A stretch of 64,000 nt of DNA from assembly GCF_000963005.1 (NCBI RefSeq), contig NZ_JZHZ01000007.1:1331808-1395807 (forward strand). The letters run 5' to 3'. A model generated the notes under the pieces. The model saw only the letters and a list, made by a program, of their open reading frames with translations, ran no database searches and was not told the origin of the DNA. Origin of the DNA: Xanthomonas sp. GPE 39. Lineage in GTDB: Bacteria > Pseudomonadota > Gammaproteobacteria > Xanthomonadales > Xanthomonadaceae. Within the stretch, counting starts at the first letter, position 1. Each line of letters starts with the position of its first letter. Below are positions 49,071 to 51,838 of the stretch, piece after piece. The translations under genes and the position numbers were made by a program.

Positions 49071-49574
49071 ATGGCCTCCAGACAAACCACGCCGCTCGTC
49101 GGCATCGTGATGGGTTCCCGCTCCGATTGGGAGACTATGCAGCACGCGGCGGAAAAGCTCGATGCGTTGGGTGTACCGCATGAGGTGAAGGTCGTGTCGG
49201 CGCACCGCACGCCGGATGTGCTGTTCGCCTATGCCGAGGCGGCGGCGGCGCGTGGGTTGCGGGCGATCATTGCCGGTGCCGGCGGCGCGGCGCACCTACC
49301 GGGCATGCTCGCGGCGAAGACGGCGGTGCCGGTGCTGGGCGTGCCGGTGCAGTCCAAGGCGCTCAATGGCATGGACTCTTTGTTGTCGATCGTGCAGATG
49401 CCGGCGGGTATTCCGGTGGCTACCTTCGCCATCGGCAATGCCGGCGCGGCCAATGCCGCGCTGTTCGCCGCGGCGATGCTGGCGGCCGAGCACGGCGATG
49501 TCGCTACGGCGCTGAGCGCGTTTCGCCAGCGCCAGACAGAAGACGTGATGGCCAAGGACGATCCGCGCCAATGA
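49071..49574 (+). CDS. purE: 5-(carboxyamino)imidazole ribonucleotide mutase
   Basis: Converts N5-CAIR to CAIR in purine synthesis. 167 aa with [29 protein letters not shown] and [26 protein letters not shown], diagnostic of class I PurE. Overlaps purK by ATGA. Confidence 0.96.
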
Positions 49575-50719
49575 CGACGGTCGGTATTCTGGGAGCAGGG
49601 CAGTTGGCTCGGATGCTGGCGATTGCTGGCGCGCCACTGGGCCTGCGCTTTGCCATGCTGGATACGGTGGCCGACGCTTGCGCCGGCCAGGTTGCGCCGC
49701 TGCAGGTTGGCGATTACCGCGATGCGACGGCGCTGGCCGCTTTCGCCGCCAAGGTGGATCTGGCGACCTTCGATTTCGAAAACGTGCCGGCCAGCAGCGC
49801 CGAGTGGCTGGCGGGGCAGGTGCCGGTCTTCCCCAGTCCGGACGCGTTGGCCGTGGCGCAGGACCGCTTGGCCGAGAAGACCTTGTTCCGCGAACTGGGC
49901 ATCCCGGTGCCCGCGTTTGCTCCGGTCGATACCCGCGAGGAGCTGGATGCGGCACTGGCTCTGGTCGGCACGCCGTGCATTCTCAAGACCCGCCGTCTTG
50001 GCTACGACGGCAAAGGTCAGTTCCGCATCGCCTCCGTGGCCGATGCCGATACGGCCTGGGCGGCGTTGGGCGCGCAGGCGTCGAGCGTCGGTTTGATCGC
50101 CGAGGCGTTCGTGCCGTTCCAGCGCGAGATCAGCGTGGTGGCGGTACGTGGTCGCGATGGCGAATTCCGCACCTGGCCGCTGACCGAGAATTGGCATGTC
50201 CAAGGTGTGCTGTCGGCCAGTCTGGCCCCGGCGCAGGCCGATGCCGCGTTGGAGCAGTCCGCTGTTGCGCATGCGCGGGCTTTGGCCGAGCGCTTGCAGT
50301 ACGTCGGCGTGTTCGCGCTGGAGTTGTTCTGCCGCGATGGGGTGTTGCTCGCCAACGAGATGGCACCGCGCGTGCACAACTCCGGCCACTGGACCATCGA
50401 AGGCGCCGAGACCTCGCAATTTGAGAACCATCTGCGCGCGGTGCTGGGCTTGCCGCTTGGGTCCACGCGCATGTGCGGCCATGCCTGCATGCTCAACTGG
50501 ATTGGTGCGATGCCCGATGCCGCGCCGGTGCTGGCCCAGCCCGGTGGGCATTGGCACGACTACGGCAAGGAGTCGCGCGAGGGCCGCAAGGTCGGCCATG
50601 CCACGCTACGTGAGGAGACGGCCGAGGCGCTCGCGCAGGCGCTGCAGACGGTCGGTGTGCAATTGCAACGTCAGGCGCAGGTCGCCCCGGTGATCGCTGC
50701 ACTGCGTGGGCAGCGCTGA
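49571..50719 (+). CDS. purK: 5-(carboxyamino)imidazole ribonucleotide synthase
   Basis: ATP-grasp enzyme making N5-CAIR from AIR, bicarbonate and ATP. 382 aa: N-terminal [24 protein letters not shown]-grasp core with [31 protein letters not shown], and the metal site in [18 protein letters not shown]. Pairs with purE. Confidence 0.96.
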
Positions 50720-50766
50720 TGCAGCGGCATCGCTGTCGATGCGTGTCCCGGTGCAGTGATGCTTGT

Positions 50767-50799
50767 GCGATATCGGCGTGCCAGTACTGCCGACATCGC
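50767..50799. terminator. hairpin between convergent purK and sodB
   Basis: GCGATATCGGC (50767-50777) and GCCGACATCGC (50789-50799) pair over 11 bases with one mismatch, loop 11. It lies midway in the 90-base gap between convergent genes, suggesting a shared terminator, but no T-run is present on either side. Confidence 0.4.
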
Positions 50800-50809
50800 C
50801 GGTGCGATC

Positions 50810-51388
50810 TCAGCGCAGGTTGTTGGAGACAAATTCCCAGTTGACCAGCTTCCAAAATGCCTCCAGGTAGCGTGCGCGGTCGCCGGGGTAATCGATGACG
50901 TAGGCGTGTTCCCACATGTCGCAGGCCAGCAGCGGGACATCCTGGCCCGTCAACGGTGATACCCCATTAGCGGTGACGACCACGGCCAAGTTGTCGTCCG
51001 GGCGTTGCACCAGCCAGACCCAGCCCGAGCCGAACACGCTCAGCGCCATGCGGGTGAACTCGGCCTTGAAGCTGGCGATGTCGCCGAAGCGCTTGGTCAG
51101 CAGTTCGCCAAGCGCCCCACTGGGCTCGCCGCCGCCGCGCGGGCGCAGGCCGCGCCAGTAGAACGCATGATTCCAGACCTCGGCGGCCTCTTCGAACAGG
51201 CGACCCTGGGCGCGCCGCAGCAGATCCTCTAGCGGCAAATCCGCCAATTCGCTGCCGGCAATGCGTGCATTGAGCCGTTCCACCAGGTTGCGCTGGTGTT
51301 GGCCGTGATGATGCTCCAGTGTCGCCACCGAAAGATGCGGCGTCAGTGCGCTGTAGTCGTAGGGCAGCGGGGCGAGTTCGATGGCCAT
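50810..51388 (-). CDS. sodB: iron-type superoxide dismutase with altered second-sphere residues
   Basis: 192-aa SodB-fold protein. It aligns without gaps to E. coli FeSOD over the first 74 residues. The four metal ligands are present: His27 (LEHHHG), His74 (VWNHAFYW), and the Asp and His of CDMWEHAY. Two outer-sphere residues differ: the gateway Tyr (Tyr34 in mature E. coli numbering) is Leu35, and the Gln that hydrogen-bonds the metal-bound water (Gln69) is Glu70. Normal dismutase activity is therefore uncertain. Divergent from grxD, with which it shares a 130-base promoter region. Confidence 0.9.
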   Translation of the reverse strand: MAIELAPLPYDYSALTPHLSVATLEHHHGQHQRNLVERLNARIAGSELADLPLEDLLRRAQGRLFEEAAEVWNHAFYWRGLRPRGGGEPSGALGELLTKRFGDIASFKAEFTRMALSVFGSGWVWLVQRPDDNLAVVVTANGVSPLTGQDVPLLACDMWEHAYVIDYPGDRARYLEAFWKLVNWEFVSNNLR

Positions 51389-51517
51389 GGATCCTCGGTG
51401 GCAGGGTGCGCGTGTTTCGGTACGATCACGCGCAGGGCTTACACTATGCGGCGATGCGAAAGTCTAGTCGACCGTCGAGGTCGTTCTTTCGCCCCAGCAG
51501 CAGGAGGAGAACCCGCA

Positions 51518-51838
51518 ATGCAGGTGATGGAGCGCATCCAGGCCGATGTTGAACGGCATCCCATTGTGTTGTTCATGAAGGGGACGCCGCAGTATCCGAT
51601 GTGCGGTTTCTCCAGTCGTGCGTTGCAGGCGTTGCTGGTCGCCGGCGCCGACCGGTTGCATACGATCAACGTGCTCGATGAACCGGAAATCCGCGCCAAT
51701 CTGCCTCGGTATTCGAATTGGCCGACTTTCCCGCAGTTGTTCATCCATGGCGAATTGATTGGCGGTTGCGACATCACTCTGGAGTTGTTCGAGTCCGGTG
51801 AGTTGCAGCGCATTGTGACCGAGGCATACCTGTCGTGA
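51518..51838 (+). CDS. grxD: monothiol glutaredoxin Grx4
   Basis: 106-aa iron-sulfur cluster carrier. CGFS active site in PMCGFSSRALQ, the TPQYPMCGFS signature, and WPTFPQLFIHGELIGGCDI cover the GSH/cluster site. AGGAGG precedes ATG 51518. Overlaps the SDR gene and forms a three-gene run with marC. Confidence 0.95.
   Translation: MQVMERIQADVERHPIVLFMKGTPQYPMCGFSSRALQALLVAGADRLHTINVLDEPEIRANLPRYSNWPTFPQLFIHGELIGGCDITLELFESGELQRIVTEAYLS

What the first reader, a model, noticed from the sequence alone, without database searches (positions are those of the whole stretch)
50810..51388. Superoxide dismutase with natural Tyr34 to Leu and Gln69 to Glu substitutions
An ungapped alignment to E. coli FeSOD across residues 1-74 shows all four metal ligands kept but the gateway Tyr replaced by Leu and the outer-sphere Gln replaced by Glu (codon GAG at the AAEVWNH segment). 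In E. coli the Gln69Glu mutation is known to raise the iron reduction potential greatly and to impair superoxide oxidation. This protein may be a reductase-like or specialised variant rather than a normal dismutase.
Basis: partly seen in the sequence, partly recalled or inferred. Interest (0 to 1): 0.75.

Follow-up and report, generated by a model that had tools for sequence, protein, structure and literature searches.

The report
Iron SOD with rewired active site
A Xanthomonas-type bacterium carries an iron superoxide dismutase whose catalytic helper residues are replaced throughout the relatives of its genus that were read, and neighbouring genera have lost theirs in other ways, so it has probably stopped being a normal dismutase but is still kept by selection.

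Summary
Window 50810-51388 (minus) is an intact 192-aa SodB with all four metal ligands, Leu at Tyr34 (CTG) and Glu at Gln69 (GAG). It is not an error: 20 of 20 genomes of its genus have both. E69 is rare elsewhere: 2 of 369 Gammaproteobacteria genomes, the window included. Tyr163 is also replaced. Flanking genes mark the ordinary sodB locus. A canonical SodM is present.

The wider finding: sodB active sites broke repeatedly and differently around Xanthomonas: C30/E34 in other Xanthomonas (published for X. citri, PMC6322740), C34 or H34, some with E69, in Pseudoxanthomonas, metal ligands lost in two groups. All 47 broken genomes read have a second Fe/Mn SOD, against 31 of 157 intact ones. Variant genes stay under purifying selection, omega about 0.1. 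E69 was never seen with Tyr34 (26 of 26).

Best reading: a metal-binding SodB that lost efficient dismutation once SodM could cover, kept for another role. One-way, reductase-like chemistry is possible but unproven; I found no activity data for this protein.

The parts
50810..51388 (-). sodB orthologue, 192 aa, variant FeSOD (SodFM2 type)
51308..51310 (-). codon for metal ligand His26 (CAT)
51296..51298 (-). codon for His30 (CAC), kept here
51284..51286 (-). codon for residue 34, Leu (CTG) where E. coli has Tyr
   Evidence: L in 20 of 20 genomes of the genus
51179..51181 (-). codon for residue 69, Glu (GAG) where E. coli has Gln
   Evidence: E in 20 of 20 genomes of the genus; also found by the pattern scans
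51167..51169 (-). codon for metal ligand His73 (CAT)
50918..50920 (-). codon for metal ligand Asp156 (GAC)
50906..50908 (-). codon for metal ligand His160 (CAC)
50897..50899 (-). codon for residue 163, Val (GTC) where E. coli has Tyr
   Evidence: not Tyr in 5 of 20 genomes of the genus
51518..51838 (+). grxD (monothiol glutaredoxin with CGFS; named by eye), divergent neighbour of sodB
49571..50719 (+). purK (named by eye), neighbour on the other side of sodB

Best explanation
The gene is the sodB of this lineage. Shown: fold, metal ligands, aromatic cage and locus are kept; second-shell residues that in ordinary FeSOD position the metal-bound solvent and pass protons (Tyr34, Gln69, and here Tyr163) are replaced; a canonical SodM is present; the gene is under purifying selection. 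Inferred: the protein still binds iron, but E69 favours protonated solvent and Fe(II), and loss of Tyr34 cuts the proton path, so the two-way dismutation cycle stalls. SodM does the cell's cytosolic dismutation. The protein is kept for a role that needs the folded, metal-loaded protein rather than fast dismutation. Once a second SOD could cover, sodB lost dismutation several times independently in the Xanthomonas/Stenotrophomonas/Pseudoxanthomonas part of the family.
For: In the genus L34, E69, the four ligands, W77, W122, W158, N72, Y76 and E159 are each 20 of 20, while Y163 is replaced in 5 of 20. Canonical SodM in 20 of 20. Genomes whose SodB lacks Y34 or Q69 or a ligand: 47 of 47 have at least two Fe/Mn SOD matches (43, 3, G070); intact ones 31 of 157 (28 of 56, 1 of 77, 2 of 24). 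Put the other way, 0 of 126 single-SOD genomes read are broken. Different breaks in other genera: E34 or D34 in 11 of 11 other Xanthomonas (one pair identical); H34, C34 and E69 in Pseudoxanthomonas; C34/T69 in g72; ligands lost in 8 of 8 of g47 and in G183. Parsimony on 30 or 31 tips gives 8 (rpoB tree) or 6 (sodB tree) intact/broken changes. Omega 0.099 for sodB and 0.042 for sodM in the genus. Literature: X. citri SodB judged unlikely to be active and sodM deletion not obtained (PMC6322740); S. maltophilia SodB called marginalized (PMC6479884).
Against: I found no activity, metal or expression data for this protein or any L34/E69 SOD. Strict conservation of L34, E69 and every ligand in the genus looks more like a tuned active site than a spare one. 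Fe(II) lock-in by E69 is carried over from recalled work on one E. coli mutant. Relaxed constraint is not tied to breakage: intact g48 copies have omega 0.073, the same as broken g17 (0.074). The second-SOD link is not corrected for relatedness (by genus 7 of 7 broken against 12 of 35 intact), and 31 intact genomes also have two SODs. In S. maltophilia the triple sod mutant was much sicker than the double sodA mutant (PMC6479884), so a SodB of this clade can still matter for superoxide.
Confidence: 0.6

Rival explanations
1. One-way, reductase-like enzyme: E69 raises the Fe(III)/Fe(II) potential so far that the protein reduces superoxide to peroxide with electrons from a cellular donor but cannot oxidise superoxide. 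E69 with loss of Tyr34 is then a recurrent adaptive conversion.
For: E69 is found in g1, g10, g37 and, outside the family, G351, each time without Tyr34 (26 of 26 sequences: 20, 4, 1 and 1), and the trees separate the three family groups. The four ligands are kept in the E69 sequences read, whereas the ligand-lost g47 and G183 copies keep Q69. No classical superoxide reductase domain (PF01880) in the genome. The E. coli Q69E structure 2nyb is among the nearest folds (TM 0.96, rank 4).
Against: No donor gene is linked: grxD and purK flank ordinary sodB as well. Neighbouring lineages broke the site in chemically unrelated ways. E69 clades also vary at residues 30 and 163. g37 sits on a long branch in the sodB tree. 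The potential shift is recalled, not tested.
Confidence: 0.15
2. Still an efficient dismutase: other residues compensate for L34 and E69.
For: All ligands and the aromatic cage are kept in 20 of 20; strong purifying selection. Tyr34 substitutions alone are mild in E. coli FeSOD (recalled).
Against: No C-terminal Gln replaces Gln69; Y163 is lost too in the window; SodM is present in 20 of 20; sodM could not be deleted in X. citri, whose SodB also has a changed active site (PMC6322740).
Confidence: 0.17
3. Metal-independent scaffold or moonlighting pseudoenzyme in all of these lineages.
For: g47 copies lost H73 and D156 in 8 of 8, yet seven of them give omega 0.111 and search tables show no stops inside.
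Against: In the window's genus the four ligands and the cage are invariant in 20 of 20, which a scaffold would not need.
Confidence: 0.07
4. Decaying gene under no selection, or a sequencing error at the two codons.
For: Omega is about twice that of sodM in the same genomes (0.099 against 0.042).
Against: Omega is about 0.1, no stops inside in 20 of 20, and the same two residues in 20 of 20 assemblies.
Confidence: 0.01

Closest known systems
Canonical gammaproteobacterial FeSOD SodB (SodFM2), E. coli 1isa
   Same: Same fold (TM 0.96), 50% identity, same four ligands, grxD nearby
   Different: Y34L, Q69E, Y163V; X_D-2 is A where most canonical family copies have T. NCBIfam SodB model 232 bits against a cut-off of 348; canonical L026 scores 348.8, Pseudomonas L102 342.8, E. 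coli 426.7
E. coli FeSOD mutant Q69E (2nyb; 2bkb has the same sequence)
   Same: Glu at 69 in the AAEVWNH context
   Different: Laboratory single mutant that keeps Tyr34 (alignment); the window protein is natural and lacks Tyr34 and Tyr163
X. citri SodB XAC2677 (PMC6322740: passages, sections 15 and 16 read)
   Same: A SodB of Xanthomonas with second-shell residues replaced; authors judged it unlikely to be catalytically active
   Different: Published changes are His to Cys (position 30) and Tyr to Glu (position 34); the window has H30, L34 and E69. The paper says Xanthomonas in general has the Cys/Glu pair; 0 of 20 genomes of the window's group do
S. maltophilia SodB (PMC6479884: abstract, results, legends and passages read)
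   Same: Neighbouring lineage in which SodA enzymes do most of the work and sodB deletion has little effect
   Different: g48 copies that I take for Stenotrophomonas keep H30/Y34/Q69 in 7 of 8; the S. maltophilia protein itself was not read here
Superoxide reductase (desulfoferrodoxin/neelaredoxin)
   Different: Unrelated fold and ligands (recalled); PF01880 not found in this genome

Membership tests
Fe/Mn superoxide dismutase family (Pfam Sod_Fe_N + Sod_Fe_C) | Both domains over the curated cut-offs | tested here: met
   68 bits (cut-off 27) and 123.8 bits (cut-off 20.9)
Fe/Mn superoxide dismutase family (Pfam Sod_Fe_N + Sod_Fe_C) | SOD fold | tested here: met
   AlphaFold2 model pLDDT 95.4, pTM 0.91; 1isa and 2nyb TM 0.96
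SodFM2 (FeSOD, SodB) | Four metal ligands, three His and one Asp | tested here: met
   H26, H73, D156, H160
SodFM2 (FeSOD, SodB) | Water-coordinating Gln in the N-terminal half (position 69) | tested here: not met
   Glu in 20 of 20 genomes of the genus. Definition from PMC10172142 passages
SodFM1 (MnSOD) | Water-coordinating Gln in the C-terminal half (position 141 here) | tested here: not met
   G in the window; A, G or V in the other 19 of the genus
Catalytically competent dismutase | Tyr34, His30 and Tyr163 in place (role of Tyr163 recalled) | tested here: not met
   L34 and V163 in the window; H30 kept
Catalytically competent dismutase | Dismutase activity with Fe or Mn | not testable with these tools
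   needs purified protein
sodB orthologue by position | grxD divergent upstream, purK downstream | tested here: met
   grxD in 42 of 43 loci examined (not in Pseudomonas L102; 1300 bases away in E. coli), purK in 36 of 43; short flanks limit the misses' meaning
SodB equivalog (NCBIfam NF007832) | Score over the cut-off of 348 | tested here: inconclusive
   232.4 bits, but a Pseudomonas SodB with an intact site also misses it, 342.8
Superoxide reductase (PF01880) | Desulfoferrodoxin domain | tested here: not met
   The window protein has only Sod_Fe domains; no PF01880 in the genome
Reductase-like one-way FeSOD | High Fe potential, donor-dependent superoxide reduction | not testable with these tools
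   needs purified protein

The most novel reading that the evidence does not exclude
Evolution has repeatedly made the Q69E-type FeSOD that I know only as a laboratory mutant. In about four lineages Gln69 became Glu, each time with Tyr34 removed and the metal ligands kept, giving a natural Fe(II)-locked protein in the SOD fold that reduces superoxide (or peroxide) one way instead of dismutating it, while SodM does the dismutation.
Probability: 0.15. Interest if true: 0.8.

Novelty: new variant of a known kind. Interest (0 to 1): 0.52.

Why it matters
Second-shell tuning of SOD is a textbook case of how one hydrogen bond sets a metal's redox potential, studied mostly (as I recall) with laboratory mutants. 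Here is a natural series in one bacterial family at one conserved locus: intact, Q69E-like, Y34E-like and ligandless SodBs, with the condition that seems to permit the loss (a second SOD) readable in each genome. It lets one ask directly what a SOD is kept for when it no longer dismutates. It also warns that sodB annotations in this clade should not be read as active FeSOD.

Tried and rejected
Sequencing error: rejected, 20 of 20 genomes share both residues. Pseudogene under no selection: rejected, omega 0.099. Compensation by a C-terminal Gln as in SodFM1: looked for, absent in 20 of 20. A linked electron donor: none seen beyond grxD and purK, which flank canonical copies too. Classical superoxide reductase in the genome: none. 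The phylum-scan hit L314 to the E69 pattern is not a SOD. A promoter scan of 50700-51560 found no sigma-70-like site. Text searches for the Q69E mutant: none, one unrelated paper, a review (PMC8633580, passages read) that says Gln69 helps set the redox potential and metal specificity but not what Q69E does; that part is recalled. The NCBIfam SodB cut-off is not decisive.

Analysis faults: one search failed on file names and was redone. One search took the wrong strand for some sodM genes and printed no omega; corrected. One search read wrong frames for some RpoB proteins; its rpoB tree was discarded and redone, its sodB tree kept. The 49 'canonical' sequences were picked for Y34, Q69 and T at X_D-2, so their agreement at those three sites means nothing. 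Residues 30 and 34 are alignment-dependent in three congeners with a one-residue deletion (residue 30 only) and in several g10 and g47 copies (G127 and G223 read H or a gap at 34).

Sampling: of the 195 genomes with a match, residues were read in 192 (164, G070), plus 11 more of the window's genus and G039 of another family: 204 in all. Not counted: G180 (cut by a contig end; Q69 and three ligands present), G228 (fragment only), G072 (only a SodM-type gene found in an 87% complete assembly). Copy numbers are matches per genome, entered by hand and not checked gene by gene outside the window's genus. Broken copies were first sought among genomes with two matches; the single-SOD genomes were read afterwards.

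Full report
What is there. Window 50810-51388 on the minus strand encodes a complete 192-residue Fe/Mn SOD. In E. coli FeSOD numbering it keeps ligands H26, H73, D156 and H160, and W77, W122, W158, N72, Y76, E159 and H30. It has Leu at 34 (CTG), Glu at 69 (GAG) and Val at 163 (GTC). The nearest solved sequence is that of 2bkb and 2nyb, the E. coli Q69E mutant. An AlphaFold2 model from 40 sequences has mean pLDDT 95.4; its best Foldseek matches include E. coli FeSOD Q69H (rank 1), wild type (rank 2) and Q69E (rank 4), each TM 0.96.

Whose it is. The genome (3.53 Mb, 8 contigs) has three Fe/Mn SOD genes and one CuZn SOD. The two other Fe/Mn genes are a canonical SodM-like enzyme (L002/L147) and one that looks exported, downstream of a Nramp-like transporter gene (L001; both judged by eye). 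A named record with the same sequence type is Xanthomonas sp. NCPPB 1128. I did not determine the species. G028 of g10 has the protein of Pseudoxanthomonas daejeonensis. g48 is taken as Stenotrophomonas because G183 shares C34 and Asp156-to-Asn with S. mori; this is inference.

Conservation. In the genus, L34, E69, all ligands and the cage residues listed are each 20 of 20. Residue 30 is H in 19 (with a one-residue deletion beside it in three) and Y in one. Y163 is kept in 15 and is V, F, C, C or W in 5. Elsewhere E69 is rare. In 369 Gammaproteobacteria genomes 185 have a Q-or-E match to the DNA pattern and 2 have E: the window and G351. In 398 phylum genomes a slightly looser pattern hit 2, the window and a non-SOD. 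In 395 family genomes it hit 25: 20 of the window's genus, 4 of g10 and 1 of g37. G351 has two adjacent SOD genes; the second carries C34 and E69 with ligands kept. All 26 E69 SODs (20, 4, 1, 1) lack Tyr34: L in g1 and g37; C in two g10 copies, H or a gap, by alignment, in the other two; C in G351. The trees keep g1, g10 and g37 apart, so about four origins, with g37 on a long branch.

The wider decay. 111 sodB proteins were aligned (99 from G genomes, 12 named). Around Xanthomonas the site is not stable: E34 (10) or D34 (1) with C30 (10) or Y30 (1) in 11 of 11 g17 or named Xanthomonas; H34, C34 and E69 in g10; L69 in g2; L34/E69 in g37; C34/T69 in g72; H73 and D156 replaced in 8 of 8 g47; H26, H73 and D156 replaced in G183, D156 in S. 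mori. Intact copies exist inside this clade: g63 3 of 3, g62 1 of 1, g48 7 of 8, one of g10. g63 is the sister of the window's genus in the sodB tree (support 96) and, weakly, in the rpoB tree (59). Outside it, the 77 further family copies and 24 of the 28 are intact; the other four are G095, G174, G223 and the truncated G180. Intact/broken changes by parsimony number 8 on the rpoB tree (30 tips) and 6 on the sodB tree (31 tips); rpoB support is low in places, so the number is rough. Flanking genes show these are positional orthologues (grxD 42 of 43 loci, purK 36 of 43).

Link to a second SOD. Broken means Y34, Q69 or a ligand lost. All 47 broken genomes read have two or more Fe/Mn SOD matches (43, 3, 1). 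Of 157 intact ones 31 do (28 of 56, 1 of 77, 2 of 24). None of the 126 single-SOD genomes read is broken. By genus, on the set only, it is 7 of 7 broken against 12 of 35 intact (Fisher P 0.002; relatedness not corrected). A second SOD looks necessary, not sufficient.

Selection. GY+F3X4 omega: window genus sodB 0.099 (20 sequences), sodM 0.042 (20); g17 0.074; ligandless g47 0.111 (7); g10 0.144; intact g48 0.073; intact g63 0.036 (3); g51 0.029 (4); canonical set 0.049 (15). Constraint on the window's group is about two to three times weaker than on sodM or most intact sodB, but far from neutral. Intact g48 is as relaxed as broken g17, so relaxation does not track breakage neatly.

Literature. 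PMC6322740 (passages, sections 15 and 16) reports that X. citri SodB has Cys and Glu at positions 31 and 35 of its numbering, argues that it is probably inactive, says Xanthomonas in general shares these, and reports that sodM could not be deleted in X. citri, as had been described for X. campestris. The window's group has a different pair. PMC6479884 (abstract, results, legends, passages) deleted sodB in S. maltophilia with little effect and called SodB marginalized; yet the double sodA mutant grew, with a defect, and the triple mutant barely did, so SodB there still helps. Side by side (my inference): where the site is probably intact, SodB can partly back up the Mn enzymes; where it is broken, sodM looks essential. 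PMC10172142 (passages) defines SodFM classes by the water-coordinating Gln; neither it nor PMC13008324 (passages) has the word Xanthomonas in the main text. That Q69E in E. coli raises the iron potential by hundreds of millivolts and spoils superoxide oxidation is recalled.

Mechanism. Shown: second-shell residues replaced, metal site kept, SodM present, gene under selection. Inferred: E69 hydrogen-bonds the metal-bound solvent and stabilises Fe(II); with Tyr34 and Tyr163 gone the proton path is cut; dismutation is lost or very weak. What the protein does instead is not known; my commitment is to a metal-loaded, non-dismutase role (0.6), with one-way reduction as the boldest form (0.15).

Limits. 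I found no activity, metal or expression data. Alignment near residues 30-34 is uncertain in g10 and g47. That the L34/E69 pair is not in print rests on searches of open-access text only, mostly on their listings.

Noticed in passing
L001:1135-1842 (own genome C1 near 1713034); L369 (G002): A third Fe/Mn SOD with what looks like a signal peptide, downstream of a Nramp-like transporter gene (by eye). G002, the other small genome of the genus, has a 92% identical copy; the other 18 genomes show only two SOD matches.
   Followed up: partly
L147 and L149 (SodM of G000 and G002): SodM looks less constrained in the two small-genome species: omega for the genus is 0.042 with them and 0.031 without, and they differ at otherwise constant places, though the catalytic residues printed look intact.
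   Followed up: partly
L128, L130, L135, L138, L140, L142, L144, L368 (genus g47): SodB orthologues that lost metal ligands H73 and D156 in 8 of 8 yet keep open frames and Q69; seven of them give omega 0.111. A likely metal-free SOD pseudoenzyme family.
   Followed up: partly
L132 (G183) and L047 (Stenotrophomonas mori): Separate loss of metal ligands (D156 to Asn in both; also H26 and H73 in G183) with C34, while 7 of 8 g48 genomes read are intact.
   Followed up: partly
L145:169-741 and L145:927-1499 (G351, another family): Two SOD genes side by side: the first has Y34 and Q69 with N72 to Ser, the second C34 and E69. It looks like a tandem pair in which one copy took the E69 state.
   Followed up: partly
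L366 (G095, genus g72): Yet another active-site state in a SodB of the family: C34 with Thr at 69 and Cys at 141, ligands kept.
   Followed up: no
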